64,000 nt of DNA, taken from positions 62,001-126,000 of the forward strand of contig JBAIAA010000786.1 of assembly GCA_037893245.1 (NCBI GenBank), read 5' to 3'. The notes beneath the pieces were generated by a model. That model was not told the DNA's origin and searched no databases. It saw only the letters and a list, made by a program, of their open reading frames with translations. Every line of letters starts with the position of its first letter. Position 1 is the first letter of the stretch. Shown here piece by piece: positions 20,984 through 64,000 of this stretch. Source of the stretch: Crossaster papposus. Its lineage: Eukaryota; Echinodermata; Asteroidea; Velatida; Solasteridae. Position numbers and translations under genes: made by a program.

Positions 20984-21022
20984 GCGTGGCAGGCGAGAAT
21001 TCTACCACTGAACCACCGATGC
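20984..21022 (-). pseudogene. tRNA-Gly 5'-half fragment at the array boundary
   Basis: Only tRNA positions 1 to about 40 are present (acceptor 5' strand, D arm, anticodon loop with GCC). The sequence changes to unrelated CATTCTATTAATT at 20983. The T arm and terminator are missing, so box B is lost and it should not be transcribed by Pol III. Confidence 0.85.
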
Positions 21023-21092
21023 TTCGCACGATTTCCTAAACACTCATTTCAGTTGAAAATACAATATTTAGAAAAATACATGTTAACAAAAT

Positions 21093-23002
21093 TGCACCGG
21101 CCGGGAATCGAACCAGGGCCTCCCGCGTGGCAGGCGAGAATTCTACCACTGAACCACTGATGCTTCGCACGATTTCCTAAACACTCATTTCAGTTGAAAA
21201 TACAATAGGCCTATTTAGAAAAATACATGTTAACAAAATTGCACCGGCCGGGAATCGAACCCGGGCCTCCCGCGTGGCAGGCGAGAATTCTACCACTGAA
21301 CCACCGATGCTCCGCACGATTTCCTAAACACTCATTTCAGTTGAAAATACAATATTTAGAAAAATACATGTTAACAAAATTGCTCCGGCCGGGAATCGAA
21401 CCCGGGCCTCCCGCGTGGCAGGCGAGAATTCTACCACTGAACCACCGATGCTTCGCACGATTTCCTAAACACTCATTTCAGTTGAAAATAAAATATTTAG
21501 AAAAATACATGTTAACAAAATTGCACAGGCCGGGAATCGAACCCGGGCCTCCCGCGTGGCAGGCGAGAATTCTACCACTGAACCACCGATGCTCCGCACG
21601 ATTTCCTAAACACTCATTTCAGTTGAAAATACAATATTTAGAAAAATACATGTTAACAAAATTGCACCGGCCGGGAATCGAACCCGGGCCTCCCGCGTGG
21701 CAGGCGAGAATTCTACCACTGAACCACCGATGCTCCGCACGATTTCCTAAACACTCATTTCAGTTGAAAATATTATATTTAGAAAAATACATGTTAACAA
21801 AATTGCACCGGCCGGGAATCGAACCCGGGCCTCCCGCGTGGCAGGCGAGAATTCTACCACTGAACCACCGATGCTTCGCACGATTTCCTAAACACTCATT
21901 TCAGTTGAAAATACAATATTTAGAAAAATACATGTTAACAAAATTGCACCGGCCGGGAATCGAACCCGGGCCTCACGCGGGGCAGGCGAGAATTCTACCA
22001 CTGAACCACCGATGCTTCGCACTATTTCCTAAACACTCATTTCAGTTGAAAATACAATATTTAGAAAAATACATTTTAACAAAATTGCAATGGCCGGGAA
22101 TCGAACCCGGGCCTCCCGCGTGGCAGGCGAGAATTCTACCACTGAACCACCGATGCTCTGCACGATTTCCTAAACACTCAATTCAGTTGAAAATACAATA
22201 TTTACAAAAATACATGTTAACAAAATTGCACCGGCCGGGAATCGAACCCGGGCCTACCGCGTGGCAGGCGAGAATTCTACCACTGAACCACCGATGCTTC
22301 GCACGATTTCCTAAACACTCATTTCAGTTGAAAATACAATATTTAGAAAAATACATGTTAACAAAATTGCACCGGCCGGGTATCGAACCCGGGCCTCCCG
22401 CGAGGCAGGCGAGAATTCTACCACTGAACCACCGATGCTTCGCACGATTTCCTAAACACTCATTTCAGTTGAAAATACAATATTTAGAAAAATACATGTT
22501 AACAAAATTGCACCGGCCGGGAATCGAACCCGGGCCTCCCGCGTGGCAGGCGAGAATTCTACCACTGAACCACCGATGCTCCGCACGATTTCCTAAACAC
22601 TCATTTCAGTTGAAAATACAATATTTAGAAAAATACATTTTAACAAAATTGCAATGGCCGGGAATCGAACCCGGGCCTCCCGCGTGGCAGGCGAGAATTC
22701 TACCACTGAACCACCGATGCTCCGCACGATTTCCTAAACACTCAATTCAGTTGAAAATACAATATTTACAAAAATACATGTTAACAAAATTGCACCGGCC
22801 GGGAATCGAACCCGGGCCTACCGCGTGGCAGGCGAGAATTCTACCACTGAACCACCGATGCTTCGCACGATTTCCTAAACACTCATTTCAGTTGAAAATA
22901 CAATATTTAGAAAAATACATGTTAACAAAATTGCACCGGCCGGGTATCGAACCCGGGCCTCCCGCGTGGCAGGCGAGAATTCTACCACTGAACCACTGAT
23001 GC
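21093..23002 (-). tRNA. tRNA-Gly block 1: 14 genes
   Basis: Genes start (low coordinate) at 21093 and then at 21240 + 141n for n = 0-12, each 71 nt. The acceptor is GCATCGG with U4-G69 wobble. The first gene has a T-stem change (AACCAGGG on plus) and an ACTGATGC acceptor change. The gene at 21945 has C37 (CGGGGCAGG), the one at 22368 has U37, and several have ATGGCC instead of ACCGGCC at the 3' acceptor strand (22086, 22650), which breaks two pairs. An AGGCCT insertion precedes 21240. Confidence 0.93.
21164..21239 (-). terminator. Representative spacer: Pol III terminator and AT-rich 5' element (AGGCCT variant)
   Basis: Just 3' of each tRNA on the minus strand comes ATTTTG (T4 two bases after the discriminator), then GTTAACATG, then a second run TTTTT about 16 bp further on. 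Next, towards the following gene, is CTAAATATTGTATTTTC, which sits at about -33 to -50 relative to that gene and could act as an upstream AT element. The array repeats this arrangement about 300 times. This spacer carries the extra AGGCCT. Confidence 0.7.
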
Positions 23003-25898
23003 TTCGCACGATTTCCTAAACACTCATTTCAGTTGAAAATACAATAGGCCTATTTAGAAAAATACATGTTAACAAAATTGCACCGGCCGGGAATCGAACC
23101 CGGGCCTCCCGCGTGGCAGGCGAGAATTCTACCACTGAACCACCGATGCTCCGCACGATTTCCTAAACACTCATTTCAGTTGAAAATACAATATTTAGAA
23201 AAATACATGTTAACAAAATTGCTCCGGCCGGGAATCGAACCCGGGCCTCCCGCGTGGCAGGCGAGAATTCTACCACTGAACCACCGATGCTTCGCACGAT
23301 TTCCTAAACACTCATTTCAGTTGAAAATAAAATATTTAGAAAAATACATGTTAACAAAATTGCACCGGCCGGGAATCGAACCCGGGCCTCCCGCGTGGCA
23401 GGCGAGAATTCTACCACTGAACCACCGATGCTCCGCACGATTTCCTAAACACTCATTTCAGTTGAAAATACAATATTTAGAAAAATACATGTTAACAAAA
23501 TTGCACCGGCCGGGAATCGAACCCGGGCCTCCCGCGTGGCAGGCGAGAATTCTACCACTGAACCACCGATGCTCCGCACGATTTCCTAAACACTCATTTC
23601 AGTTGAAAATATTATATTTAGAAAAATACATGTTAACAAAATTGCACCGGCCGGGAATCGAACCCGGGCCTCCCGGGTGGCAGGCGAGAATTCTACCACT
23701 GAACCACCGATGCTTCGCACGATTTCCTAAACACTCATTTCAGTTGAAAATACAATATTTAGAAAAATACATGTTAACAAAATTGCACCGGCCGGGAATC
23801 GAACCCGGGCCTCCCGCGTGGCAGGCGAGAATTCTACCACTGAACCACCGATGCTTCGCACTATTTCCTAAACACTCATTTCAGTTGAAAATACAATATT
23901 TAGAAAAATACATTTTAACAAAATTGCAATGGCCGGAAATCGAACCCGGGCCTCCCGCGTGGCAGGCGAGAATTCTACCACTGAACCACCGATGCTCCGC
24001 ACGATTTCCTAAACACTCAATTCAGTTGAAAATACAATATTTACAAAAATACATGTTAACAAAATTGCAATGGCCGGGAATCGAACCCGGGCCTCCCGCG
24101 TGGCAGGCGAGAATTCTACCACTGAACCACCGATGCTCCGCACGATTTCCTAAACACTCATTTCAGTTGAAAATACAATATTTAGAAAAATACATGTTAA
24201 CAAAATTGCACCGGCCGGGAATCGAACCCGGGCCTCCCGCGTGGCAGGCGAGAATTCTACCACTGAACCACCGATGCTCCGCACGATTTCCTAAACACTC
24301 ATTTCAGTTGAAAATATTATATTTAGAAAAATACATGTTAACAAAATTGCACCGGCCGGGAATCGAACCCGGGCCTCCCGGGTGGCAGGCGAGAATTCTA
24401 CCACTGAACCACCGATGCTTCGCACGATTTCCTAAACACTCATTTCAGTTGAAAATACAATATTTAGAAAAATACATGTTAACAAAATTGCACCGGCCGG
24501 GAATCGAACCCGGGCCTCCCGCGTGGCAGGCGAGAATTCTACCACTGAACCACCGATGCTTCGCACTATTTCCTAAACACTCATTTCAGTTGAAAATACA
24601 ATATTTAGAAAAATACATTTTAACAAAATTGCAATGGCCGGAAATCGAACCCGGGCCTCCCGCGTGGCAGGCGAGAATTCTACCACTGAACCACCGATGC
24701 TCCGCACGATTTCCTAAATACTCAATTCAGTTGAAAATACAATATTTACAAAAATACATGTTAACAAAATTGCACCGGCCGGGAATCGAACCCGGGCCTA
24801 CCGCGTGGCAGGCGAGAATTCTACCACTGAACCACCGATGCTTCGCACGATTTCCTAAACACTCATTTCAGTTGAAAATACAATATTTAGAAAAATACAT
24901 GTTAACAAAATTGCACCGGCCGGGTATCGAACCCGGGCCTCCCGCGAGGCAGGCGAGAATTCTACCACTGAACCACCGATGCTTCGCACGATTTCCTAAA
25001 CACTCATTTCAGTTGAAAATACAATATTTAGAAAAATACATGTTAACAAAATTGCACCGGCCGGGAATCGAACCCGGGCCTCCCGCGTGGCAGGCGAGAA
25101 TTCTACCACTGAACCACCGATGCTTCGCACGATTTCCTAAACACTCCTTTCAGTTGAAAATACAATATTTAGAAAAATACATGTTAACAAAATTGCACCG
25201 GCCGGGAATCGAACCCGGGCCTCCCGCGTGGCAGGCGAGAATTCTACCACTGAACCACCGATGCTTCGCACGATTTCCTAAACACTCATTTAAGTTGAAA
25301 ATACAATATTTACAAAAATACATGTTAACAAAATTGCACCGGCCGGGAATCCAACCCGGGCCTCCCGCGTGGCAGGCGAGAATTCTACCACTGAACCACC
25401 GATGCTTCGCACGATTTCCTAAACACTCATTTCAGTTGAAAATATAATATTTAGAAAAATACATGTTAACAAAATTGCACCGGCCGGGAATCGAACCCGG
25501 GCCTCCCGCGTGGCAGGCGAGAATTCTACCACTGAACCACCGATGCTTCGCACGATTTCCTAAACACTCATTTCAGTTGAAAATACAATATTTAGAAAAA
25601 TACATGTTAACAAAATTGCACCGGCCGGGAATCGAACCCGGGCCTCCCGCGTGGCAGGCGAGAATTCTACCACTGAACCACCGATGCTTCGCACGATTTC
25701 CTAAACACTCATTTCAGTTGAAAATACAATATTTAGAAAAATACATGTTAACAAAATTGCACCGGCCGGGAATAGAACCCGGGCCTCCCGCGTGGCAGGC
25801 GAGAATTCTACCACTGAACCACCGATGCTCCGCACGATTTCCTAAACACTCCTTTTAGTTGAAAATACAATATTTAGAAAAATACATGTGAACAAAAT

Positions 25899-34019: not shown

Positions 34020-35499
34020 TTCGCACGATTTCCTAAACACTCATTTCAGTTGAAAATACAATATTTAGAAAAATACATGTTAACAAAATTGCACCGGCCG
34101 GGAATCGAACGCGGGCCTCCCGCGGGGCAGGCGAGAATTCTACCACTGAACCACCGGTGCTTCGCACGATTTCCTAAACACTCATTCCAGTTGAAAATAC
34201 AATATTTAGAAAAATACATGTTAACAAAATTGCACCGGCCGGGAATCGAACCCGGGCCTCCCGCGTGGCAGGCGAGAATTCTACCACTGAACCACCGGTG
34301 CTTCGCACGATTTCCTAAACACTCATTTCAGTTGAAAATACAATATTTAGAAAAATACATGTTAACAAAATTGCACCGGCCGGGAATCGAACCCGGGCCT
34401 CCCGCGTGGCAGGCGAGATTTATACCACTGAACCACCGGTGCTTCGCACGATTTCCTAAACACTCATTCCAGTTGAAAATACAATATTTAGAAAAATACA
34501 TGTTAACAAAATTGCACCGGCCGGGAATCGAACCCGGGCCTCCCGCGTGGCAGGCGAGAATTCTACCACTGAACCACCGGTGCTTCGCACGATTTACTAA
34601 ACACTCATTTCAGTTGAAAATGCAATATTTAGAAAAATACATGTTAACAAAATTGCACCGGCCAGGAATTGAACCCGGGCCTCTCGCGTGGCAGGCGAGA
34701 ATTCTACCACTGAACCACCGGTGCTTCGCACGATTTCTTAAACACTCATTTCAGTTGAAAATACAATATTTAGAAAAATACATGTTAACAAAATTGCACC
34801 GGCCGGGAATCGAACCCGGGCCTCCCGCGTGGCAGGCGAGAATTCTACCACTGAACCACCGGTGCTTCGCACGATTTCCTAAACACTCATTCCAGTTGAA
34901 AATACAATATTTAGAAAAATACATGTTAACAAAATTGCACCGGCCGGGAATCGAACCCGGGCCTCCCGCGTGGCAGGCGAGAATTCTACCACTGAACCAC
35001 CGGTGCTTCGCACGATTTCCTAAACACTCATTCCAGTTGAAAATACAATATTTAGAAAAACACATGTTAACAAAATTGCACCGGCCGGGAATCGAACCCG
35101 GGCCTCCCGAGTGGCAGGCGAGAATTCTACCACTGAACCACCGGTGCTTCGCACGATTTACTAAACACTCATTTCAGTTGAAAATGCAATATTTAGAAAA
35201 ATACATGTTAACAAAATTGCACCGGCCGGGAATCGAACCCGGGCCTCCCGCGTGGCAGGCGAGAATTCTACCACTGAACCACCGGTGCTTCGCACGATTT
35301 CCTAAACACTCATTCCTGTTGAAAATACAATATTTAGAAAAATACATGTTAACAAAATTGCACCGGCCGGGAATCGAACCCGGGCCTACCGCGTGGCAGG
35401 CGAAAATTCTACCACTGAACCACCGGTGCTTCGCACGATTTCCTAAACACTCATTCCAGTTGAAAATACAATATTTAGAAAAATACATGTTAACAAAAT

Positions 35500-35569
35500 T
35501 GAACCGGCCGGGAATCGAACCCGGGCCTCCGCGTGGCAGGCGAGAATTCTACCACTGAACCACCGGTGC
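35500..35569 (-). pseudogene. tRNA-Gly with anticodon-stem deletion, copy 1
   Basis: CCTCCGCG replaces CCTCCCGCG on plus: one base of the 3' anticodon-stem strand is missing. U71 (TTGAACCGG on plus) breaks the C2-G71 pair as well. Five copies share both lesions. Confidence 0.8.
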
Positions 35570-36626
35570 TTCGCACGATTTCCTAAACACTCATGCCAGT
35601 TAAATATACAATATTTAGAAAAATACATGTTAACAAAATTGCACCGGCCGGGAATCGAACCCGGGCCTCCCGCGTGGCAGGCGAGAATTCTACCACTGAA
35701 CCACCGGTGCTTCGCACGATTTCCTAAACACTCATTCCAGTTGAAAATACAATATTTAGAAAAATACATGTTAACAAAATTGCACCGGCCGGGAATCGAA
35801 CCCGGGCCTCCCGCGTGGCAGGCGAGAATGCTACCACTGAACCACCGGTGCTTCGCACGATTTCCTAAACACTCATTTCAGTTGAAAATACAATATTTAG
35901 AAAAATACATGTTAACAAAATATCACCGGCCGGGAATCGAACCCGGGCCTCCCGCGTGGCAGGCGACAATTCTACCACTGAACCACCGGTGCTTCGCACG
36001 ATTTCCTAAACACTCATTCCAGTTGAAAATACAATATTTAGAAAAATACATGTTAACAAAATTGCACCGGCCGGGAATCGAACCCGGGCCTCCGGCGTGG
36101 CAGGCGAGAATTCTACCACTGAACCACCGGTGCTTCGCACGATTTCCTAAACACTCATGCCAGTTGAAAATACAATATTTAGAAAAATACATGTTAACAA
36201 AATTGCACCGGCCGGGAATCGAACCCGGGCCTCCCGCGTGGCAGGCGAGAATTCTACCACTGAACCACCGGTGCTTCGCACGATTTCCTAAACACTCATT
36301 CCATTTGAAAATACAATATTTAGAAAAATACATGTTAACAAAATTGCACCGGCCGGGAATCGAACCCGGGCCTCCCGCGTGGCAGGCGAGAATTCTACCA
36401 CTGAACCACCGGTGCTTCGTACGATTTCCTAAACACTCCTTTCAGTTGAAAATACAATATTTAGAAAAATACATGTTAACAAAATTGCACCGGCCGGGAA
36501 TCGAACCCGGGCCTCCCGCGTGGCAGGCGAGAATTCTACCACTGAACCACCGGTGATTCGCACGATTTCCTAAACACTCATTTCAGTTGAAAATACAATA
36601 TTTAGAAAAATACATGTTAACAAAAT

Positions 36627-36697
36627 TGCACCGGCCGGGAATCGAACCCGGGCCTCCCGCGTGGGAGGCGAGAATTCTACCACTGAACCACCGGTGC
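36627..36697 (-). tRNA. tRNA-Gly(CCC), copy 1
   Basis: The plus strand has GTGGGAGGCG where neighbours have GTGGCAGGCG. The anticodon loop therefore reads CTCCCAC instead of CTGCCAC: a single G34C change that gives anticodon CCC (reads GGG). All other determinants are unchanged and the cloverleaf is intact. As I recall, CCC-type glycine tRNAs in vertebrates differ from GCC-type mainly at this base, so the product is plausibly functional. Confidence 0.88.
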
Positions 36698-46883: not shown

Positions 46884-49800
46884 TTCGAACGATTTCCTAA
46901 ACACTCATGCCAGTTAAATATACAATATTTAGAAAAATACATGTTAACAAAATTGCACCGGCCGGGAATCGAACCCGGGCCTCCCGCGTGGCAGGCGAGA
47001 ATTCTACCACTGAACCACCGGTGCTTCGCACGATTTCCTAAACACTCATTCCAGTTGAAAATACAATATTTAGAAAAATACATGTTAACAAAATTGCACC
47101 GGCCGGGAATCGAACCCGGGCCTCCCGCGTGGCAGGCGACAATTCTACCACTGAACCACCGGTGCTTCGCACGATTTCCTAAACACTCATTCCAGTTGAA
47201 AATACAATATTTAGAAAAATACATGTTAACAAAATTGCACCGGCCGGGAATCGAACCCGGGCCTCCCGCGTGGCAGGCGAGAATTCTACCACTGAACCAC
47301 CGGTGCTTCGCACGATTTCCTAAACACTCATGCCAGTTGAAAATACAATATTTAGAAAAATACATGTTAACAAAATTGCACCGGCCGGGAATCGAACCCG
47401 GGCCTCCCGCGTGGCAGGCGAGAATTCTACCACTGAACCACCGGTGCTTCGCACGATTTCCTAAACACTCATTCCATTTGAAAATACAATATTTAGAAAA
47501 ATACATGTTAACAAAATTGCACCGGCCGGGAATCGAACCCGGGCCTCCCGCGTGGCAGGCGAGAATTCTACCACTGAACCACCGGTGCTTCGCACGATTT
47601 CCTAAACCCTCATTCCAGTTGAAAATACAATATTTAGAAAAATACATGTTAACAAAATTGCAACGGCCGGGAATCGAACCCGGACCTCCCGCGTGGCAGG
47701 CGAGAATTCTACCACTGAACCACCGGTGCTTGGCACGATTTCCTAAACACTCATTTCAGTTGAAAATACAATATTTAGAAAAATACATGTTAACAAAATT
47801 GCACCGGCCGGGAATCGAACCCGGGCCTCCCGCGTGGCAGGCGAGAATTATACCACTGAACCACCGGTGCTTCGCACGATTTCCTAAACACTCATTTCAG
47901 TTTAAAATACAATATTTAGAAAAATACATGTTAACAAAATTGCACCGGCCGGGAATCGAACCCGGGCCTACCGCGTGGCAGGCGAAAATTCTACCACTGA
48001 ACCACCGATGCTTCGCACGATTTCCTAAACACTCATTCCAGTTGAAAATACAATATTTAGAAAAATACATGTTAACAAAATTGCACCGGCCGGGAATTGA
48101 ACCCGGGCCTCCCGCGTGGCAGGCGAGAATTCTACCACTGAACCACCGGTGCTTCGCACGATTTCCTAAACACTCATTTCAGTTAAAAATACAATATTTA
48201 GAAAAATACATGTTAACAAAATTGCACCGGCCGGGAATCGAACCCGGGCCTCCCGCGTGGCAGGCGAGAATTCTACCACTGAACCACCGGTGCTTCGCAC
48301 GATTTCCTAAACACTCATTCCAGTTGAAAATACAATATTTAGAAAAATACATGTTAACAAAATTGCACATGTTAACAAAATTGCACCGGCCGGGAATCTA
48401 ACCCGGACCTCCCGCGTGGCAGGCGAGAATTCTACCACTGAACCACCGGTGCTTCGCACGATTTCCTAAACACTCATTCCAGTTGAAAATACAATATTTA
48501 GAAAAATACATGTTAACAAAATTGCACCGGCCGGGAATCGAACCCGGGCCTCCCGCGTGGCAGGCGAGAATTCTACCACTGAACCACCGGTGCTTCGCAC
48601 GATTTCCTAAACACTCATTTCAGTTGAAAATACAATATTTAGAAAAATACATGTTAACAAAATTGCACCGGCCGGAAATCGAACCCGGGCCTCCCGCGTG
48701 GCAGGCGAGAATTATACCACTGAACCACCGGTGCTTCGCACGATTTCCTAAACACTCATTCCAGTTGAAAATACAATATTTAGAAAAATACATGTTAACA
48801 AAATTGCACATTTTAACAAAATTGCACCGGCCGGGAATCGAACCCGGACCTCCCGCGTGGCAGGCGAGAATTCTACCACTGAACCACCGGTGCTTCGCAC
48901 GATTTCCTAAACACTCATTCCAGTTGAAAATACAATATTTAGAAAAATACATGTTAACAAAATTGCACCGGCCGGGAATCGAACCCGGGCCTCCCGCGTG
49001 GCAGGCGAGAATTCTACCACTGAACCACCGGTGCTTCGCACGATTTCATAAACACTCATTCCAGTTGAAAATACAATATTTAGAAAAATACATGTTAACA
49101 AAATTGCACCGGCCGGGAATCGAACCCGGGCCTCCCGCGTGGCAGGCGAGAATGCTACCACTGAACCACCGGTGCTTCGCACGATTTCCTAAACACTCAT
49201 TTCAGTCGAAAATACAATATTTAGAAAAATACATGTTAACAAAATTTCACCGGCCGGGAATCGAACCCGGGCCTCCCGCGTGGCAGGCGAGAATTCTACC
49301 ACTGAACCACCGGTGCTTCGCACGATTTCCTAAACACTCATTCCAGATGAAAATACAATATTTAGAAAAATACATGTTAACAAAATTGCACCGGCCGGGA
49401 ATCGAACCCGGGCCTCCCGCGTGGCAGGCGAGAATTCTACCACTGAACCACCGGTGCTTCGCACGATTTCCTAAACACTCATGCCAGTTGAAAATACAAT
49501 ATTTAGAAAAATACATGTTAACAAAATTGCACCGGCCGGGAATCGAACCCGGGCCTCCCGCGTGGCAGGCGGGAATTCTACCACTGAACCACCGGTGCTT
49601 CGCACGACTTCCTAAACACTCATTCCAGTTGAAAATACAATATTTAGAAAAATACATGTTAACAAAATTGCACCGGCCGGGAATCGAACCCGGGCCTCCC
49701 GCGTGGCAGGCGAGAATTCTACCACTGAACCACCGGTGCTTCGCACGATTTCCTAAACACTCATTTCAGTTGAAAATACAATATTTAGAAAAATACATGT

Positions 49801-51255
49801 TAACAAAATTGCACCGGCCGGGAATCGAACCCGGGCCTCCCGCGTGGCAGGCGAGAATTCTACCACTGAACCACCGGTGCTTCGCACGATTTCCTAAACA
49901 CTCATTCCAGTTCAAAATACAATATTTAGAAAAATACATGTTAACAAAATTGCACATGTTAACAAAATTGCACCGGCCGGGAATCGAACCCGGACCTCCC
50001 GCGTGGCAGGCGAGAATTCTACCACTGAACCACCGGTGCTTCGCACGATTTCCTAAACACTCATTCCAGTTGAAAATACAATATTTAGAAAAATACATGT
50101 TAACAAAATTGCACCGGCCGGGAATCGAACCCGGGCCTCCCGCGTGGCAGGCGAGAATTCTACCACTGAACCACCGGTGCTTCGCACGATTTCCTAAACA
50201 CTCATTCCAGATGAAAATACAATATTTAGAAAAATACATGTTAACAAAATTGCACCGGCCGGGAATCGAACCCGGGCCTCCCGCGTGGCAGGCGAGAATT
50301 CTACCACTGAACCACCGGTGCTTCGCACGATTTCCTAAACACTCATGCCAGTTGAAAATACAATATTTAGAAAAATACATGTTAACAAAATTGCACCGGC
50401 CGGGAATCGAACCCGGGCCTCCCGCGTGGCAGGCGGGAATTCTACCACTGAACCACCGGTGCTTCGCACGACTTCCTAAACACTCATTCCAGTTGAAAAT
50501 ACAATATTTAGAAAAATACATGTTAACAAAATTGCACCGGCCGGGAATCGAACCCGGGCCTCCCGCGTGGCAGGCGAGAATTCTACCACTGAACCACCGG
50601 TGCTTCGCACGATTTCCTAAACACTCATTTCAGTTGAAAATACAATATTTAGAAAAATACATGTTAACAAAATTGCACCGGCCGGGAATCGAACCCGGGC
50701 CTCCCGCGTGGCAGGCGAGAATTCTACCACTGAACCACCGGTGCTTCGCACGATTTCCTAAACACTCATTCCAGTTCAAAATACAATATTTAGAAAAATA
50801 CATGTTAACAAAATTGCACATGTTAACAAAATTGCACCGGCCGGGAATCGAACCCGGACCTCCCGCGTGGCAGGCGAGAATTCTACCACTGAACCACCGG
50901 TGCTTCGCACGATTTCCTAAACACTCATTCCAGTTGAAAATACAATATTTAGAAAAATACATGTTAACAAAATTGCACCGGCCGGGAATCGAACCCGGGC
51001 CTCCCGCGTGGCAGGCGAGAATTCTACCACTGAACCACCGGTGCTTCGCACGATTTCGTAAACACTCATTTCAGTTGAAAATACAATATTTAGAAAAATA
51101 CATGTTAACAAAATTGCACCGGCCGGGAATCGAACCCGGGCCTACCGCGTGGCAGGCGAAAATTCTACCACTGAACCACCGGTGCTTCGCACGATTTCCT
51201 AAACACTCATTCCAGTTGAAAATACAATATTTAGAAAAATACATGTTAACAAAAT

Positions 51256-51325
51256 TGAACCGGCCGGGAATCGAACCCGGGCCTCCGCGTGGCAGGCGAG
51301 AATTCTACCACTGAACCACCGGTGC
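51256..51325 (-). pseudogene. tRNA-Gly with anticodon-stem deletion, copy 4
   Basis: Same two lesions, followed by a duplicated-terminator spacer. Confidence 0.8.
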
Positions 51326-51413
51326 TTCGCACGATTTCCTAAACACTCATGCCAGTTAAATATACAATATTTAGAAAAATACATGTTAACAAAATTGCAC
51401 ATGTTAACAAAAT

Positions 51414-54400
51414 TGCACCGGCCGGGAATCGAACCCGGACCTCCCGCGTGGCAGGCGAGAATTCTACCACTGAACCACCGGTGCTTCGCACGATTTCCTA
51501 AACACTCATTCCAGTTGAAAATACAATATTTAGAAAAATACATGTTAACAAAATTGCACCGGCCGGGAATCGAACCCGGGCCTCCCGCGTGGCAGGCGAG
51601 AATTCTACCACTGAACCACCGGTGCTTCGCACGATTTCCTAAACACTCATTTCAGTTGAAAATACAATATTTAGAAAAATACATGTTAACAAAATTGCAC
51701 CGGCCGGAAATCGAACCCGGGCCTCCCGCGTGGCAGGCGAGAATTATACCACTGAACCACCGGTGCTTCGCACGATTTCCTAAACACTCATTCCAGTTGA
51801 AAACCCAATATTTAGAAAAATACATGTTAACAAAATTGCACATTTTAACAAAATTGCACCGGCCGGGAATCGAACCCGGACCTCCCGCGTGGCAGGCGAG
51901 AATTCTACCACTGAACCACCGGTGCTTCGCACGATTTCCTAAACACTCATTCCAGTTGAAAATACAATATTTAGAAAAATACATGTTAACAAAATTGCAC
52001 CGGCCGGGAATCGAACCCGGGCCTCCCGCGTGGCAGGCGAGAATTCTACCACTGAACCACCGGTGCTTCGCACGATTTCATAAACACTCATTCCAGTTGA
52101 AAATACAATATTTAGAAAAATACATGTTAACAAAATTGCACATTTTAACAAAATTGCACCGGCCGGGAATCGAACCCGGACCTCCCGCGTGGCAGGCGAG
52201 AATTCTACCACTGAACCACCGGTGCTTCGCACGTTTTCCTAAACACTCATTCCAGTTGAAAATACAATATTTAGAAAAATACATGTTAACAAAATTGCAC
52301 ATTTTAACAAAATTGCACCGGCCGGGAATCGAACCCGGACCTCCCGCGTGGCAGGCGAGAATTCTACCACTGAACCACCGGTGCTTCGCACGATTTCCTA
52401 AACACTCATTCCAGTTGAAAATACAATATTTAGAAAAATACATGTTAACAAAATTGCACCGGCCGGGAATCGAACCCGGGCCTCCCGCGTGGCAGGCGAG
52501 AATTCTACCACTGAACCACCGGTGCTTCGCACGATTTCCTAAACACTCATTCCAGTTGAAAATACAATATTTAGAAAAATACATGTTAACAAAATTGCAC
52601 CGGCCGGGAATCGAACCCGGGCCTCCCGCGTGGCAGGCGAGAATTCTACCACTGAACCACCGGTGCTTCGCACGATTTCCTAAACACTCATTCCAGTTCA
52701 AAATACAATATTTAGAAAAATACATGTTAACAAAATTGCACATGTTAACAAAATTGCACCGGCCGGGAATCGAACCCGGACCTCCCGCGTGGCAGGCGAG
52801 AATTCTACCACTGAACCACCGGTGCTTCGCACGATTTCCTAAACACTCATTCCAGTTGAAAATACAATATTTAGAAAAATACATGTTAACAAAATTGCAC
52901 CGGCCGGGAATCGAACCCGGGCCTCCCGCGTGGCAGGCGAGAATTCTACCACTGAACCACCGGTGCTTCGCACGATTTCCTAAACACTCATTCCAGATGA
53001 AAATACAATATTTAGAAAAATACATGTTAACAAAATTGCACCGGCCGGGAATCGAACCCGGGCCTCCCGCGTGGCAGGCGAGAATTCTACCACTGAACCA
53101 CCGGTGCTTCGCACGATTTCCTAAACACTCATGCCAGTTGAAAATACAATATTTAGAAAAATACATGTTAACAAAATTGCACCGGCCGGGAATCGAACCC
53201 GGGCCTCCCGCGTGGCAGGCGGGAATTCTACCACTGAACCACCGGTGCTTCGCACGACTTCCTAAACACTCATTCCAGTTGAAAATACAATATTTAGAAA
53301 AATACATGTTAACAAAATTGCACCGGCCGGGAATCGAACCCGGGCCTCCCGCGTGGCAGGCGAGAATTCTACCACTGAACCACCGGTGCTTCGCACGATT
53401 TCCTAAACACTCATTTCAGTTGAAAATACAATATTTAGAAAAATACATGTTAACAAAATTGCACCGGCCGGGAATCGAACCCGGGCCTCCCGCGTGGCAG
53501 GCGAGAATTCTACCACTGAACAACCGGTGCTTCGCACGATTTCCTAAACACTCATTCCAGTTCAAAATACAATATTTAGAAAAATACATGTTAACAAAAT
53601 TGCACATGTTAACAAAATTGCACCGGCCGGGAATCGAACCCGGACCTCCCGCGTGGCAGGCGAGAATTCTACCACTGAACCACCGGTGCTTCGCACGATT
53701 TCCTAAACACTCATTCCAGTTGAAAATACAATATTTAGAAAAATACATGTTAACAAAATTGCACCGGCCGGGAATCGAACCCGGGCCTACCGCGTGGCAG
53801 GCGAAAATTCTACCACTGAACCACCGGTGCTTCGCACGATTTCCTAAACACTCATTCCAGTTGAAAATACAATATTTAGAAAAATACATGTTAACAAAAT
53901 TGAACCGGCCGGGAATCGAACCCGGGCCTCCGCGTGGCAGGCGAGAATTCTACCACTGAACCACCGGTGCTTCGCACGATTTCCTAAACACTCATGCCAG
54001 TTAAATATACAATATTTAGAAAAATACATGTTAACAAAATTGCACATGTTAACAAAATTGCACCGGCCGGGAATCGAACCCGGACCTCCCGCGTGGCAGG
54101 CGAGAATTCTACCACTGAACCACCGGTGCTTCGCACGATTTCCTAAACACTCATTCCAGTTGAAAATACAATATTTAGAAAAATACATGTTAACAAAATT
54201 GCACCGGCCGGGAATCGAACCCGGGCCTCCCGCGTGGCAGGCGAGAATTCTACCACTGAACCACCGGTGCTTCGCACGATTTCCTAAACACTCATTTCAG
54301 TTGAAAATACAATATTTAGAAAAATACATGTTAACAAAATTGCACCGGCCGGAAATCGAACCCGGGCCTCCCGCGTGGCAGGCGAGAATTATACCACTGA

Positions 54401-55452
54401 ACCACCGGTGCTTCGCACGATTTCCTAAACACTCATTCCAGTTGAAAATACAATATTTAGAAAAATACATGTTAACAAAATTGCACATTTTAACAAAATT
54501 GCACCGGCCGGGAATCGAACCCGGACCTCCCGCGTGGCAGGCGAGAATTCTACCACTGAACCACCGGTGCTTTGCACGATTTCCTAAACACTCATTCCAG
54601 TTGAAAATACAATATTTAGAAAAATACATGTTAACAAAATTGCACCGGCCGGGAATCGAACCCGGGCCTCCCGCGTGGCAGGCGAGAATTCTACCACTGA
54701 ACCACCGGTGCTTCGCACGATTTCATAAACACTCATTCCAGTTGAAAATACAATATTTAGAAAAATACATGTTAACAAAATTGCACATTTTAACAAAATT
54801 GCACCGGCCGGGAATCGAACCCGGACCTCCCGCGTGGCAGGCGAGAATTCTACCACTGAACCACCGGTGCTTCGCACGATTTCCTAAACACTCATTCCAG
54901 TTGAAAATACAATATTTAGAAAAATACATGTTAACAAAATTGCACATTTTAACAAAATTGCACCGGCCGGGAATCGAACCCGGACCTCCCGCGTGGCAGG
55001 CGAGAATTCTACCACTGAACCACCGGTGCTTCGCACGATTTCCTAAACACTCATTCCAGTTGAAAATACAATATTTAGAAAAATACATGTTAACAAAATT
55101 GCACCGGCCGGGAATCGAACCCGGGCCTCCCGCGTGGCAGGCGAGAATTCTACCACTGAACCACCGGTGCTTCGCACGATTTCCTAAACACTCATTCCAG
55201 TTGAAAATACAATATTTAGAAAAATACATGTTAACAAAATTGCACCGGCCGGGAATCGAACCCGGGCCTCCCGCGTGGCAGGCGAGAATTCTACCACTGA
55301 ACCACCGGTGCTTCGCACGATTTCCTAAACACTCATGCCAGTTGAAAATACAATATTTAGAAAAATACATGTTAACAAAATTGCACCGGCCGGAAATCGA
55401 ACCCGGGCCTCCCGCGTGGCAGGCGAGAATTATACCACTGAACCACCGGTGC
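51414..55452 (-). tRNA. tRNA-Gly block 8: 28 genes, dense in 18-bp terminator duplications
   Basis: Starts at 51414+141n (0-2), 51855+141n (0-1), 52155, 52314+141n (0-2), 52755+141n (0-5), 53619+141n (0-2), 54059+141n (0-2), 54500+141n (0-1), 54800 and 54959+141n (0-3). Ten of the 17 duplicated-terminator spacers in the window fall at or next to this block. All anticodons I read are GCC. The gene at 53901 has the anticodon-stem deletion. Confidence 0.92.
53901..53970 (-). pseudogene. tRNA-Gly with anticodon-stem deletion, copy 5
   Basis: Same two lesions, 2,645 bp from copy 4 with the same following spacer, so a segmental duplicate of it. Confidence 0.8.
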
Positions 55453-58400
55453 TTCGCACGATTTCCTAAACACTCATTCCAGTTGAAAATACAATATTTA
55501 GAAAAATACATGTTAACAAAATTGCACATTTTAACAAAATTGCACCGGCCGGGAATCGAACCCGGACCTCCCGCGTGGCAGGCGAGAATTCTACCACTGA
55601 ACCACCGGTGCTTCGCACGATTTCCTAAACACTCATTCCAGTTGAAAATACAATATTTAGAAAAATACATGTTAACAAAATTGCACCGGCCGGGAATCGA
55701 ACCCGGGCCTCCCGCGTGGCAGGCGAGAATTCTACCACTGAACCACCGGTGCTTCGCACGATTTCATAAACACTCATTCCAGTTGAAAATACAATATTTA
55801 GAAAAATACATGTTAACAAAATTGCACCGGCCGGGAATCGAACGCGGGCCTCCCGCGTGGCAGGCGAGAATTCTACCACTGAACCACCGGTGCTTCGCAC
55901 GATTTCCTAAACACTCATTTCAGTTGAAAATACAATATTTAGAAAAATACATGTTAACAAAATTGCACCGGCCGGGAATCGAACCCGGGCCTCCCGCGTG
56001 GCAGGCGAGAATTATACCACTGAACCACCGGTGCTTCGCACGATTTCCTAAACACTCATTTCAGTTGAAAATACAATATTTAGAAAAATACATGTTAACA
56101 AAATTGCACCGGCCGGGAATCGAACCCGGGCCTCCCGCGTGGCAGGCGAGAATTCTACCACTGAACCACCGGTGCATCGCACGATTTCCTAAACACTCAT
56201 TCCAGTTGAAAATACAATATTTAGAAAAATACATGTTAACAAAATTGCACCGGCCGGGAATCGAACCCGGGCCTCCCGCGTGGCAGGCGAGAATTCTACC
56301 ACTGAACCACCGGTGCTTCGCACGATTTCCTAAACACTCATGCCAGTTAAATATACAATATTTAGAAAAATACATGTTAACAAAATTGCACCGGCCGGGA
56401 ATCGAACCCGGGCCTCCCGCGTGGCAGGCGAGAATTCTACCACTGAACCACCGGTGCTTCGCACGATTTCCTAAACACTCATTCCAGTTGAAAATACAAT
56501 ATTTAGAAAAATACATGTTAACAAAATTGCACCGGCCGGGAATCGAACCCGGGCCTCCCGCGTGGCAGGCGAGAATGCTACCACTGAACCACCGGTGCTT
56601 CGCACGATTTCCTAAACACTCATTTCAGTCGAAAATACAATATTTAGAAAAATACATGTTAACAAAATTTCACCGGCCGGGAATCGAACCCGGGCCTCCC
56701 GCGTGGCAGGCGAGAATTCTACCACTGAACCACCGGTGCTTCGCACGATTTCCTAAACACTCATTCCAGATGAAAATACAATATTTAGAAAAATACATGT
56801 TAACAAAATTGCACCGGCCGGGAATCGAACCCGGGCCTCCCGCGTGGCAGGCGAGAATTCTACCACTGAACCACCGGTGCTTCGCACGATTTCCTAAACA
56901 CTCATGCCAGTTGAAAATACAATATTTAGAAAAATACATGTTAACAAAATTGCACCGGCCGGGAATCGAACCCGGGCCTCCCGCGTGGCAGGCGAGAATT
57001 ATACCACTGAACCACCGGTGCTTCGCACGATTTCCTAAACACTCATTTCAGTTGAAAATACAATATTTAGAAAAATACATGTTAACAAAATTGCACCGGC
57101 CGGGAATCGAACCCGGGCCTCCCGCGTGGCAGGCGAGAATTCTACCACTGAACCACCGGTGCATCGCACGATTTCCTAAACACTCATTCCAGTTGAAAAT
57201 ACAATATTTAGAAAAATACATGTTAACAAAATTGCACCGGCCGGGAATCGAACCCGGGCCTCCCGCGTGGCAGGCGAGAATTCTACCACTGAACCACCGG
57301 TGCTTCGCACGATTTCCTAAACACTCATGCCAGTTAAATATACAATATTTAGAAAAATACATGTTAACAAAATTGCACCGGCCGGGAATCGAACCCGGGC
57401 CTCCCGCGTGGCAGGCGAGAATTCTACCACTGAACCACCGGTGCTTCGCACGATTTCCTAAACACTCATTCCAGTTGAAAATACAATATTTAGAAAAATA
57501 CATGTTAACAAAATTGCACCGGCCGGGAATCGAACCCGGGCCTCCCGCGTGGCAGGCGAGAATGCTACCACTGAACCACCGGTGCTTCGCACGATTTCCT
57601 AAACACTCATTTCAGTCGAAAATACAATATTTAGAAAAATACATGTTAACAAAATTTCACCGGCCGGGAATCGAACCCGGGCCTCCCGCGTGGCAGGCGA
57701 GAATTCTACCACTGAACCACCGGTGCTTCGCACGATTTCCTAAACACTCATTCCAGATGAAAATACAATATTTAGAAAAATACATGTTAACAAAATTGCA
57801 CCGGCCGGGAATCGAACCCGGGACTCCCGCGTGGCAGGCGAGAATTCTACCACTGAACCACCGGTGCTTCGCACGATTTCCTAAACACTCATGCCAGTTG
57901 AAAATACAATATTTAGAAAAATACATGTTAACAAAATTGCACCGGCCGGGAATCGAACCCGGGCCTCCCGCGTGGCAGGCGGGAATTCTACCACTGAACC
58001 ACCGGTGCTTCGCACGACTTCCTAAACACTCATTCCAGTTGAAAATACAATATTTAGAAAAATACATGTTAACAAAATTGCACCGGCCGGGAATCGAACC
58101 CGGGCCTCCCGCGTGGCAGGCGAGAATTCTACCACTGAACCACCGGTGCTTCGCACGATTTCCTAAACACTCATTTCAGTTGAAAATACAATATTTAGAA
58201 AAATACATGTTAACAAAATTGCACCGGCCGGGAATCGAACCCGGGCCTCCCGCGTGGCAGGCGAGAATTCTACCACTGAACCACCGGTGCTTCGCACGAT
58301 TTCCTAAACACTCATTTCAGTTGAAAATACAATATTTAGAAAAATACATGTTAACAAAATTGCACCGGCCGGGAATCGAACCCGGGCCTCCCGCGTGGCA

Positions 58401-61400
58401 GGCGAGAATTCTACCACTGACAAACCGGTGCTTCGCACGATTTCCTAAACACTCATTCCAGTTCAAAATACAATATTTAGAAAAATACATGTTAACAAAA
58501 TTGCACCGGCCGGGAATCGAACCCGGGCCTCCCGCGTGGCAGGCGAGAATTCTACCACTGAACCACCGGTGCTTCGCACGATTTCCTAAACACTCATTCC
58601 AGTTGAAAATACAATATTTAGAAAAATACATGTTAACAAAATTGCACCGGCCGGGAATCGAACCCGGGCCTCCCGCGTGGCAGCCGAGAATTCTACCACT
58701 GAACCACCGGTGCTTCGCACGATTTCCTAAACACTCATTCCAGTTGAAAATACAATATTTAGAAAAATACATGTTAACAAAATTGCACCGGCAGGGAATC
58801 GAACCCGGGCCTCCCGCGTGGCAGGCGAGAATTCTACCACTGAACCACCGGTGCTTCGCACGATTTCCTAAACACTCATTCCAGTTGAAAATACAATATT
58901 TAGAAAAATACATGTTAACAAAATTGCACCGGCCGGGAATCGAACCCGGGCCTCCCGCGTGGCAGGCGAGAATTCTACCACTGAACCACCGGTGCTTCGC
59001 ACGATTTCCTAAACACTCATGCCAGTTAAATATACAATATTTAGAAAAATACATGTTAACAAAATTGCACCGGCCGGGAATCGAACCCGGGCCTCCCGCG
59101 TGGCAGGCGGGAATTCTACCACTGAACCACCGGTGCTTCGCACGACTTCCTAAACACTCATTCCAGTTGAAAATACAATATTTAGAAAAATACATGTTAA
59201 CAAAATTGCACCGGCCGGGAATCGAACCCGGGCCTCCCGCGTGGCAGGCGAGAATTCTACCACTGAACCACCGGTGCTTCGCACGATTTCCTAAACACTC
59301 ATTTCAGTTGAAAATACAATATTTAGAAAAATACATGTTAACAAAATTGCACCGGCCGGGAATCGAACCCGGGCCTCCCGCGTGGCAGGCGAGAATTCTA
59401 CCACTGAACCACCGGTGCTTCGCACGATTTCCTAAACACTCATTTCAGTTGAAAATACAATATTTAGAAAAATACATGTTAACAAAATTGCACCGGCCGG
59501 GAATCGAACCCGGGCCTCCCGCGTGGCAGGCGAGAATTCTACCACTGACAAACCGGTGCTTCGCACGATTTCCTAAACACTCATTCCAGTTCAAAATACA
59601 ATATTTAGAAAAATACATGTTAACAAAATTGCACCGGCCGGGAATCGAACCCGGGCCTCCCGCGTGGCAGGCGAAAATTCTACCACTGAACCACCGGTGC
59701 TTCGCACGATTTCCTAAACACTCATTCCAGTTGAAAATACAATATTTAGAAAAATACATGTTAACAAAATTGCACCGGCCGGGAATCGAACCCGGGCCTC
59801 CCGCGTGGCAGCCGAGAATTCTACCACTGAACCACCGGTGCTTCGCACGATTTCCTAAACACTCATTCCAGTTGAAAATACAATATTTAGAAAAATACAT
59901 GTTAACAAAATTGCACCGGCCGGGAATCGAACCCGGGCCTCCCGCGTGGCAGGCGAGAATTCTACCACTGAACCACCGGTGCTTCGCACGATTTCCTAAA
60001 CACTCATTCCAGTTGAAAATACAATATTTAGAAAAATACATGTTAACAAAATTGCACCGGCCGGGAATCGAACCCGGGCCTCCCGCGTGGCAGGCGAGAA
60101 TTCTACCACTGAACCACCGGTGCTTCGCACGATTTCCTAAACACTCATGCCAGTTAAATATACAATATTTAGAAAAATACATGTTAACAAATTTGCACCG
60201 GCCGGGAATCGAACCCGGGCCTCCCGCGTGGCAGGCGAGAATTCTACCACTGAACCACCGGTGCTTCGCACGATTTCCTAAACACTCATTCCAGTTGAAA
60301 ATACAATATTTAGAAAAATACATGTTAACAAAATTGCACCGGCCGGGAATCGAACCCGGGCCTCCCGCGTGGCAGGCGAGAATGCTACCACTGAACCACC
60401 GGTGCTTCGCACGATTTCCTAAACACTCATTTCAGTTGAAAATACAATATTTAGAAAAATACATGTTAACAAAATTTCACCGGCCGGGAATCGAACCCGG
60501 GCCTCCCGCGTGGCAGGCGAGAATTCTACCACTGAACCACCGGTGCTTCGCACGATTTCCTAAACACTCATTCCAGATGAAAATACAATATTTAGAAAAA
60601 TACATGTTAACAAAATTGCACCGGCCGGGAATCGAACCCGGGCCTCCCGCGTGGCAGGCGAGAATTCTACCACTGAACCACCGGTGCTTCGCACGATTTC
60701 CTAAACACTCATGCCAGTTGAAAATACAATATTTAGAAAAATACATGTTAACAAAATTGCACCGGCCGGGAATCGAACCCGGGCCTCCCGCGTGGCAGGC
60801 GAAAATTCTACCACTGAACCACCGGTGCTACGCACGACTTCCTAAACACTCATTCCAGTTGAAAATACAATATTTAGAAAAATACATGTTAACAAAACTG
60901 CACCGGCCGGGAATCGAACCCGGGCCTCCCGCGTGGCAGGCGAGAATTCTACCACTGAACCACCGGTGCTTCGCACGATTTCCTAAACACTCATTCCAGT
61001 TGAAAATACAATATTTAGAAAAATACATGTTAACAAAATTGCACCGGCCGGGAATCGAACCCGGGCCTCCCGCGTGGCAGGCGAGAATGCTACCACTGAA
61101 CCACCGGTGCTTCGCACGATTTCCTAAACACTCATTTCAGTTGAAAATACAATATTTAGAAAAATACATGTTAACAAAATTTCACCGGCCGGGAATCGAA
61201 CCCGGGCCTCCCGCGTGGCAGGCGAGAATTCTACCACTGAACCACCGGTGCTTCGCACGATTTCCTAAACACTCATTCCAGATGAAAATACAATATTTAG
61301 AAAAATACATGTTAACAAAATTGCACCGGCCGGGAATCGAACCCGGGCCTCCCGCGTGGCAGGCGAGAATTCTACCACTGAACCACCGGTGCTTCGCACG

Positions 61401-61885
61401 ATTTCCTAAACACTCATGCCAGTTGAAAATACAATATTTAGAAAAATACATGTTAACAAAATTGCACCGGCCGGGAATCGAACCCGGGCCTCCCGCGTGG
61501 CAGGCGAAAATTCTACCACTGAACCACCGGTGCTACGCACGACTTCCTAAACACTCATTCCAGTTGAAAATACAATATTTAGAAAAATACATGTTAACAA
61601 AACTGCACCGGCCGGGAATCGAACCCGGGCCTCCCGCGTGGCAGGCGAGAATTCTACCACTGAACCACCGGTGCTTCGCACGATTTCCTAAACACTCATT
61701 TCAGTTGAAAATACAATATTTAGAAAAATACATGTTAACAAAATTGCACCGGCCGGGAATCGAACCCGGGCCTCCCGCGTGGCAGGCGAGAATTCTACCA
61801 CTGAACCGCCGGTGCTTCGCACGATTTCCTAAACACTCATTTCAGTTGAAAATACAATATTTAGAAAAATACATGTTAACAAAAT

Positions 61886-61956
61886 TGCACCGGCCGGGAA
61901 TCGAACCCGGGCCTCCCGCGTGGGAGGCGAGAATTCTACCACTGAACCACCGGTGC
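61886..61956 (-). tRNA. tRNA-Gly(CCC), copy 5
   Basis: G34C, otherwise consensus. First of two adjacent CCC genes. Confidence 0.88.
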
Positions 61957-62026
61957 TTCGCACGATTTCCTAAACACTCATTACAGTTGAAAATACAATA
62001 TTTAGAAACATACATGTTAACAAAAT

Positions 62027-62097
62027 TGCACCGGCCGGGAATCGAACCCGGGCCTCCCGCGTGGGAGGCGAGAATTCTACCACTGAACCACCGGTGC
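62027..62097 (-). tRNA. tRNA-Gly(CCC), copy 6
   Basis: G34C, otherwise consensus, directly next to copy 5. The spacer just left of it has unique changes (CATTACAG, AGAAACATAC). Confidence 0.88.
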
Positions 62098-62449
62098 TTC
62101 GCACGATTTCCTAAACACTCATTTCAGTTGAAAATACAATATTTAGAAAAATACATGTTAACAAAATTGCACCGGCCGGGAATCGAACCCGGGCCTACCG
62201 CGTGGCAGGCGAAAATTCTACCACTGAACCACCGGTGCTTCGCACGATTTCCTAAACACTCATTTCAGTTGAAAATACAATATTTAGAAAAATAAATGTT
62301 AACAAAATTGCACCGGCCGGGAATCGAACCCGGGCCTCCCGCGTGGCAGGCGAGAATTCTACCACTGAACCACCGGTGCTTCGCACGATTTCCTAAACAC
62401 TCATTTCAGTTGAAAATACAATATTTAGAAAAATACATGTTAACAAAAT

Positions 62450-62520
62450 TGCACCGGCCGGGAATCGAATCCGGGCCTCCCGCGTGGGAGGCGAGAATTC
62501 TACCACTGAACCACCGGTGC
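62450..62520 (-). tRNA. tRNA-Gly(CCC), copy 7, box B altered
   Basis: G34C together with G53A (CGAATCCGGG on plus), which changes GGTTCGA to GATTCGA in box B and breaks the G53-C61 pair. Reduced Pol III transcription is likely. Confidence 0.8.
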
Positions 62521-62590
62521 TTCGCACGATTTCCTAAACACTCATTTCAGTTGAAAATACAATATTTAGAAAAATACATGTTAACAAAAT

Positions 62591-62661
62591 TGCACCGGCC
62601 GGGAATCGAACCCGGGCCTCCCGCGTGGGAGGCGAGAATTCTACCACTGAACCACCGGTGC
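62591..62661 (-). tRNA. tRNA-Gly(CCC), copy 8
   Basis: G34C, otherwise consensus; paired with copy 7. Confidence 0.88.
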
Positions 62662-63295
62662 TTCGCACGATTTCCTAAACACTCATTTCAGTTGAAAATA
62701 CAATATTTAGAAAAATACATGTTAACAAAATTGCACCGGCCGGGAATCGAACCCGGGCCTACCGCGTGGCAGGCGAAAATTCTACCACTGAACCACCGGT
62801 GCTTCGCACGATTTCCTAAACACTCATTTCAGTTGAAAATACAATATTTAGAAAAATACATGTTAACAAAATTGCACCGGCCGGGAATCGAACCCGGGCC
62901 TCCCGCGTGGCAGGCGAGAATTCTACCACTGAACCACCGGTGCTTCGCACGATTTCCTAAACACTCATTCCAGTTGAAAATACAATATTTAGAAAAATAC
63001 ATGTTAACAAAATTGCACCGGCCGGGAATCGAACCCGGGCCTCCCGCGTGGCAGGCGAGAATGCTACCACTGAACCACCGGTGCTTCGCACGATTTCCTA
63101 AACACTCATTTCAGTTGAAAATACAATATTTAGAAAAATACATGTTAACAAAATTTCACCGGCCGGGAATCGAACCCGGGCCTCCCGCGTGGCAGGCGAG
63201 AATTCTACCACTGAACCACCGGTGCTTCGCACGATTTCCTAAACACTCATTCCAGTTGAAAAAAAAATATTTAGAAAAATACATGTTAACAAAAT

Positions 63296-63366
63296 TGCAC
63301 CGGCCGGGAATCGAATCCGGGCCTCCCGCGTGGGAGGCGAGAATTCTACCACTGAACCACCGGTGC
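63296..63366 (-). tRNA. tRNA-Gly(CCC), copy 9, box B altered
   Basis: Same G34C + G53A combination as copy 7, exactly 846 bp (six units) away, so it is a segmental duplicate. Confidence 0.8.
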
Positions 63367-63436
63367 TTCGCACGATTTCCTAAACACTCATTTCAGTTGA
63401 AAATACAATATTTAGAAAAATACATGTTAACAAAAT

Positions 63437-63507
63437 TGCACCGGCCGGGAATCGAACCCGGGCCTCCCGCGTGGGAGGCGAGAATTCTACCACTGAACCA
63501 CCGGTGC
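63437..63507 (-). tRNA. tRNA-Gly(CCC), copy 10
   Basis: G34C, otherwise consensus; the six-unit duplicate of copy 8. Confidence 0.88.
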
Positions 63508-64000
63508 TTCGCACGATTTCCTAAACACTCATTTCAGTTGAAAATACAATATTTAGAAAAATACATGTTAACAAAATTGCACCGGCCGGGAATCGAACCC
63601 GGGCCTACCGCGTGGCAGGCGAAAATTCTACCACTGAACCACCGGTGCTTCGCACGATTTCCTAAACACTCATTTCAGTTGAAAATACAATATTTAGAAA
63701 AATACATGTTAACAAAATTGCACCGGCCGGGAATCGAACCCGGGCCTCCCGCGTGGCAGGCGAGAATTCTACCACTGAACCACCGGTGCTTCGCACGATT
63801 TCCTAAACACTCATTCCAGTTGAAAATACAATATTTAGAAAAATACATGTTAACAAAATTGCACCGGCCGGGAATCGAACCCGGGCCTCCCGCGTGGCAG
63901 GCGAGAATGCTACCACTGAACCACCGGTGCTTCGCACGATTTCCTAAACACTCATTTCAGTTGAAAATACAATATTTAGAAAAATACATGTTAACAAAAT

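What the first reader, a model, noticed from the sequence alone, without database searches (positions are those of the whole stretch)
20984..64000. At least 302 tandem tRNA-Gly genes in one 43-kb array
Seen directly: each 141-bp unit holds a 71-nt glycine tRNA with box A, box B and a close TTTT terminator. Register arithmetic from the first (21093) to last gene (63860) closes exactly at 302 units after subtracting visible indels. Known: animal tRNA genes are usually dispersed or in small mixed clusters, though tandem tRNA repeats exist (e.g. Xenopus). A single-isoacceptor array of this size in 43 kb, continuing past the edge, is exceptional. Inference: it may be a satellite seeded by a tRNA gene, a high-output Gly-tRNA locus for a glycine-rich product, or a source of tRNA-Gly fragments.
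Basis: partly seen in the sequence, partly recalled or inferred. Interest (0 to 1): 0.88.

Follow-up and report, generated by a model that had tools for sequence, protein, structure and literature searches.

The report
Satellite array of tRNA-Gly genes
A 43-kb stretch of what looks like an animal genome consists of over 300 head-to-tail copies of one glycine tRNA gene, more than half of them intact by sequence, but their mutations show no sign that the cell needs each copy, so it behaves like a young satellite repeat built from a tRNA gene.

Summary
ARAGORN finds 302 tRNA genes at 21,093-63,930, all on the minus strand; 302 of 302 pass Rfam's tRNA threshold at 44.8-70.1 bits; the 141-bp array starts at 20,984 and runs off the window. 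Anticodon GCC in 289 of 302. Of 301 units, 299 have TTTT just downstream and 163 meet all my integrity criteria on raw sequence.

New here is how the copies vary. Mutation types fall on the gene as often as base composition predicts (73 observed, 73.2 expected), break cloverleaf pairs as often as chance (35 against 36.3), and none of the three pairs seen doubly changed is compensatory. Sequence domains and multi-unit duplications, absent from shuffled order, show local spread. It lies about 3.8 kb upstream of the start codon of a WDHD1-like gene, same strand.

Best reading: a tRNA-Gly-seeded satellite, young or continually homogenised, largely still competent for RNA polymerase III by sequence, with no detectable selection copy by copy. 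Expression, full copy number and species are unknown. Tandem tRNA arrays are known; this is an extreme variant.

The parts
20984..64000 (-). Tandem array of a 141-bp unit, each with one 71-nt tRNA-Gly(GCC) gene plus about 70 bp spacer; runs off the right edge of the window
   Evidence: TRF period 141, 302.8 copies, 94% match; 302 ARAGORN genes; 302 RF00005 hits
20984..21022 (-). Truncated last unit at the 3' end of the array: tRNA positions 1-39 (5' half) joined to unique flank
   Evidence: Read directly from the sequence
21093..21163 (-). First complete tRNA-Gly(GCC) gene (3'-most in transcription direction)
   Evidence: ARAGORN, RF00005 50.8 bits
63860..63930 (-). Last complete tRNA-Gly(GCC) gene in the window
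   Evidence: ARAGORN, RF00005 57.2 bits
21240..32538 (-). Left sequence domain: U4 variant of the tRNA (T4 in 70-100% of units per 20-unit bin); spacer position 115 is A in 80 of 80 units
35359..63930 (-). Right sequence domain: C4 variant (T4 in 0-10% of units per bin); spacer G115 in 30-100% of units per bin
49387..50180 (-). Six-unit block repeated without a difference at gene starts 50251-50974: recent multi-unit duplication
   Evidence: no such run of 6 in 20 local shuffles
35640..37702 (-). Fifteen-unit block repeated at gene starts 44398-46391 with 11 differences: larger, older duplication
   Evidence: no block reaching the score threshold in 20 local shuffles
16923..17150 (-). First coding exon of a WDHD1/AND-1-like gene; same strand as the tRNA genes, its start codon about 3.8 kb downstream of the array end
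   Evidence: Pfam PF24817 (WDHD1 first WD40 domain), E 6.2e-23, profile 1-56 of 291, 81.8 bits (below the whole-domain cutoff 109.9, as expected of one exon); frame

Best explanation
A functional tRNA-Gly(GCC) gene with about 70 bp of flank was tandemly duplicated and grew, by unequal exchange or replication-based block duplication, into a satellite-like array of over 300 copies. Shown: the array, its intact tRNA consensus, the block duplications and domains, and mutations that ignore gene, promoter boxes and cloverleaf. Inferred: the seed was a working gene; copies stay tRNA-like because the array is young and homogenised, not because each is selected; many copies can probably still be transcribed by RNA polymerase III, perhaps silenced or expressed only in some tissues.
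For: Distinct mutation types in gene 73 against 73.2 (sd 4.2) expected by base-matched placement; variable sites 52 of 71 gene, 41 of 70 spacer; diversity 0.0306 and 0.0273; singletons 28 of 73 gene and 24 of 59 spacer types, P 0.86; pair-breaking types 35 against 36.3 (sd 3.0), and weighted by copies 130 against 126.7; the three pairs seen changed on both sides are all T-T mismatches, none compensatory; box A 11 types vs 10.8 expected, box B 11 vs 10.4, anticodon 3 vs 3.4, TTTT 2 vs 2.4. Eight block duplications of 6 to 15 units with 0 to 11 differences and eight exact runs of 4 to 6 units, against no block and one exact run in all of 20 shuffles within 30-unit windows. Left/right domains. 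159 distinct units of 301, 92 distinct genes of 302.
Against: With over 300 redundant copies, selection on any one copy would be weak even if the array mattered, so neutrality of copies does not exclude function of the whole. The test has power 0.82 for removal of 30% of gene mutations but 0.47 for 20% and 0.17 for 10%. The consensus is a complete tRNA and 163 of 301 copies meet all integrity criteria. Box A changes are few by copies (23 copies over 11 sites; the 42 gene sites outside the boxes and anticodon loop have 268, of which 85 are C4T), although not by types.
Confidence: 0.66

Rival explanations
1. Dosage locus: the array is kept because it supplies large amounts of tRNA-Gly(GCC) in a tissue making a glycine-rich product, as the Arabidopsis SYY tRNA cluster supports a Ser/Tyr-rich glycoprotein in root cap and silkworm silk glands raise Gly, Ala and Ser tRNAs.
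For: 299 of 301 units have a TTTT stop, 294 a box A and 273 a box B fitting my patterns, 288 anticodon GCC; 163 meet all criteria. Precedent in passages of PMC12308677.
Against: No excess conservation of gene over spacer; pair-breaking changes as common as chance by types and by copies. No glycine-rich gene was identified nearby: the ORF list has glycine-rich frames at 16233-16839 and 18667-18978, but these are readings of a 16-bp minisatellite and a C-rich simple repeat. The rest of the genome could not be searched.
Confidence: 0.16
2. Chromatin element: hundreds of TFIIIC-binding B boxes act as a barrier or insulator beside the WDHD1-like gene, as proposed for the human 1q23.3 tRNA repeat.
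For: Array ends about 3.8 kb upstream of the WDHD1-like start codon; the human repeat is said to have barrier activity in vitro and to lie at a topological domain boundary (passages of PMC4041453).
Against: Box B is not conserved beyond chance (11 types vs 10.4 expected). No chromatin data. A CTCF-like motif was not looked for.
Confidence: 0.1
3. Assembly artefact: copy number or order is inflated or scrambled by the assembler.
For: Read depth could not be tested (no genome held); tandem arrays are hard to assemble.
Against: 159 distinct units of 301, coherent left and right domains, and duplicated blocks that differ by private changes (seven of eight blocks) look like real sequence; no N in the window. 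The one block repeated without a difference (49387/50251) could be an assembly duplication.
Confidence: 0.08

Closest known systems
Human/mouse 1q23.3 tRNA VNTR (Darrow and Chadwick 2014, PMC4041453; abstract and passages seen)
   Same: Tandem repeat made of tRNA genes including tRNA-Gly; copy-number variable; near-identical units (98%)
   Different: 7.3-kb unit with five tRNA genes for four amino acids on both strands, under 6% of the unit; 9-43 units; here a 141-bp unit, one gene, half of the unit is tRNA, one strand
Arabidopsis SYY and plant tRNA clusters (PMC12308677, passages; PMC12652284, passages)
   Same: Tandem tRNA arrays with a major sequence and many minor variants; SYY silent in most tissues, active in root cap
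   Different: 54 clustered tRNA-Tyr genes beside tRNA-Ser genes in SYY; plant clusters of 2 to 110 genes; here at least 302 of one isoacceptor, in what is inferred to be an animal
Clustered tRNA genes across eukaryotes, incl. Entamoeba arrays (Bermudez-Santana 2010, PMC2888827, abstract and passages)
   Same: Large tDNA clusters arising independently many times; most neighbours in the same direction; homogeneous pairs in Tetrahymena, Monosiga and drosophilids
   Different: Zebrafish, clawed frog and Nematostella show mostly heterogeneous pairs; no 300-gene single-isoacceptor cluster in the passages I saw (supplements not seen)
Xenopus tDNA tandem repeats and polymerase-III-transcribed satellites (recalled; tRNA gene repeats in Xenopus are also mentioned in a passage of PMC12308677)
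   Same: Tandem DNA with tRNA-type promoters in an animal
   Different: Recalled unit lengths are kilobases or about 0.7 kb; not compared here

Membership tests
Eukaryotic cytosolic tRNA-Gly(GCC) gene | Fits the tRNA covariance model | tested here: met
   302 of 302 above RF00005 gathering score
Eukaryotic cytosolic tRNA-Gly(GCC) gene | Anticodon GCC | tested here: met
   289 of 302; 10 CCC, 1 ACC, 2 GAC
Eukaryotic cytosolic tRNA-Gly(GCC) gene | Internal box A and box B and a T-run terminator | tested here: met
   Patterns (recalled consensus) met by 294, 273 and 299 of 301
Eukaryotic cytosolic tRNA-Gly(GCC) gene | Transcribed, processed and charged | not testable with these tools
   No expression data held
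Satellite DNA array | Head-to-tail, near-identical units over tens of kb | tested here: met
   302.8 copies of 141 bp, 94% match
Satellite DNA array | Local homogenisation and multi-unit duplication | tested here: met
   shuffle control
Satellite DNA array | No strong constraint on the unit's content | tested here: met
   73 types in gene vs 73.2 expected; 30% removal would be seen with power 0.82, 20% with 0.47
Satellite DNA array | Heterochromatic state, other chromosomal sites | not testable with these tools
   No genome held
SINE retroposon | Dispersed copies elsewhere | tested here: inconclusive
   No credible match of the unit in window 1-20983 (best 12 bp exact, E 0.28; 15-bp box-B-like matches, E 1.1); only this flank was available

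The most novel reading that the evidence does not exclude
An animal counterpart of the Arabidopsis SYY cluster: a mostly silent, satellite-like bank of over 300 tRNA-Gly genes that is switched on in one tissue or stage (gland, embryo, germ line) to supply glycine tRNA, or Gly-GCC 5' fragments, in bulk, with selection acting on total output and not on single copies.
Probability: 0.15. Interest if true: 0.82.

Novelty: new variant of a known kind. Interest (0 to 1): 0.52.

Why it matters
It gives a countable case for an open question: do eukaryotes keep huge tandem tRNA arrays for output, or do tRNA genes simply make good satellites? Here 163 of 301 copies remain intact while mutations ignore the gene, which separates 'looks functional' from 'is selected'. 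It also warns that tRNA-gene counts in a genome annotation can be inflated by hundreds through one locus. The private variants (C4 or U4, CCC and GAC anticodons) are ready-made tags for testing expression.

Tried and rejected
Mobile SINE origin: not supported, no related copy in the 21-kb flank, but only that flank could be searched. In the same call ARAGORN at a relaxed threshold listed 117 low-scoring items in the flank, which I take as noise. Transcription-associated mutation as a sign of activity: the A-to-G over T-to-C excess on the tRNA strand in the spacer (10 of 22 vs 3 of 30 sites, P 0.008) and G-to-T over C-to-A in the gene (16 of 26 vs 7 of 22, P 0.049) are suggestive, but they are 2 of 12 uncorrected tests, polarised by the consensus only, and not shared by gene and spacer; not used. 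CpG decay as a sign of methylation: CpG sites are no more mutated (9 transition types over 20 sites) than other C/G sites (20 over 46), so no sign of germline methylation. RNA minimum-energy fold of a majority-type copy is not a cloverleaf; usual for unmodified tRNA (recalled), and the covariance model was preferred. Relatives in public collections: no exact 37-nt spacer match in viral contigs, no exact 57-nt gene-core match in viral contigs or prokaryote genomes; uninformative for an animal. Species: not identified; animal origin is inferred from the WDHD1-like gene and from resemblance to the human tRNA-Gly-GCC sequence (recalled). Literature: ten searches; searches returned nothing; some searches listed 30 of 116, 25 of 403 and 8 of 18 papers. 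I saw no report of this array in those listings or in the passages of the five papers opened (PMC2888827, PMC4041453, PMC8167085, PMC12652284, PMC12308677; PMC8167085 was not relevant), which proves little.

Corrections made on checking: the intact count was 165 of 301 on the alignment and is 163 of 301 on raw genes, with 7 indel genes counted as not intact; the latter is used. A shuffle control for the block duplications was added.
Full report
What is there. From 20,984 to the right edge the window is one tandem array of a 141-bp unit. ARAGORN tRNA genes, all on the minus strand, at 21,093-63,930, and Rfam's tRNA model accepts 302 of 302 at 44.8 to 70.1 bits against a cutoff of 29. Of the 301 start-to-start units 262 are exactly 141 bp; 17 are 159 bp, carrying an 18-bp duplication just after the gene. 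The left end is a broken unit: tRNA positions 1-39 joined to unique DNA (by eye). The right end is not in the window, so 302 is a minimum.

Do the copies look able to work? The commonest gene (85 of 302) and its U4 form (32 of 302) are complete tRNA-Gly(GCC) genes. Of 301 aligned units, 294 fit box A, 273 box B, 288 have GCC, 299 have TTTT one base after the gene, 189 have no mismatched pair, 94 have one and 18 two (box patterns recalled). On raw sequence 163 of 301 pass everything, 7 indel genes counting as failures. Of all 302, ten have CCC, one ACC, two GAC.

Are they kept by selection? I compared where mutations fall. Against the majority sequence there are 73 distinct changes in the 71-bp gene and 59 in the 70-bp spacer. 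Placing the 132 changes at random on sites of the same base gives 73.2 (sd 4.2) in the gene. Promoter boxes, anticodon and terminator are hit as often as expected. In the cloverleaf 35 types break a pair, 36.3 (sd 3.0) expected; weighted by copies 130 against 126.7. Three pairs are seen changed on both sides (4:67 in 5 copies, 13:21 in 2, 26:42 in 14); all are T-T mismatches, none is compensatory. Rare-variant share is equal, 28 of 73 and 24 of 59. A simulated 30% removal of gene mutations would be detected with power 0.82, 20% with 0.47, 10% with 0.17. So strong copy-level constraint is unlikely and weak constraint is not excluded. Redundancy among 300 copies would itself make copy-level selection weak, so the array as a whole may still matter.

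How did it grow? Units are 159 distinct of 301, mean pairwise difference 4.15 of 141 sites. Units at 21-32.5 kb are mostly T4, those beyond 35.3 kb nearly all C4, with a mixed zone between. Eight blocks of 6 to 15 neighbouring units recur with 0 to 11 differences and eight runs of 4 to 6 units recur exactly. In 20 shuffles of unit order within 30-unit windows no block reached the same score, and one run of 4 arose in total. This is what unequal exchange or replication-based block duplication leaves behind (established knowledge of tandem repeats); rolling-circle insertion is not excluded. Neighbours are only slightly more alike (3.57 differences) than random pairs (4.15), so single-unit slippage is not the main process.

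Where is it? A WDHD1/AND-1-like gene lies on the same strand: four exons hit Pfam PF24817 in the right order (profile 1-56, 53-105, 192-259 and 258-291; each below the whole-domain cutoff, as single exons would be), with a start codon near 17,150. The array ends about 3.8 kb upstream. The flank holds no other recognisable copy of the unit.

What is known. Passages seen in PMC2888827 say large tDNA clusters arise independently in many eukaryotes, with mostly heterogeneous pairs in zebrafish, clawed frog and Nematostella. PMC4041453 (passages) describes a human 7.3-kb tRNA repeat of 9-43 units with boundary features. PMC12652284 (passages) gives plant clusters of 2 to 110 genes. PMC12308677 (passages) shows a normally silent Ser/Tyr array active in root-cap cells, cites tandem silk-gland tRNA-Ala genes in silkworm, and suggests that animal secretory systems may do the same. 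The kind is therefore known; a Gly-GCC, 141-bp, 300-plus array is an extreme variant. I did not establish that it is unreported.

Verdict. Observation confirmed; best read as a tRNA-Gly-seeded satellite, still largely competent by sequence. Whether it is expressed is the open question.

Noticed in passing
7883-17150: WDHD1/AND-1-like gene on the minus strand; four exons hit Pfam PF24817 in order. 5434-5955 looks like a further exon by eye but has no WDHD1 hit.
   Followed up: partly
1594-3623: 43-bp minisatellite, 47 copies, 95% match.
   Followed up: no
15985-16890: 16-bp minisatellite (TAGGGACCGGGGAACA), 56 copies, lying between the first two WDHD1-like coding exons found; strong strand skew.
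   Followed up: no
19165-19884: 239-codon open frame on the minus strand resembling the end of a LINE reverse transcriptase (by eye); no Pfam hit.
   Followed up: partly
192-520, 8930-9180, 9297-9760: Related tRNA-like, SINE-like stretches with box-B-like motifs, by eye; not called by ARAGORN at default threshold or by Rfam.
   Followed up: no
27732-27802 and 31257-31327: Two copies carry a GAC (valine) anticodon in a glycine tRNA body; if expressed and charged with glycine they would misread valine codons.
   Followed up: no
37543-55545: 17 units carry the same 18-bp duplication after the gene, in two forms (9 and 8 copies), a marker seen only in this part of the array.
   Followed up: partly
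20984-21022: The array's end falls in the anticodon stem, leaving a 5' tRNA half (positions 1-39) next to unique DNA; possibly coincidence.
   Followed up: no
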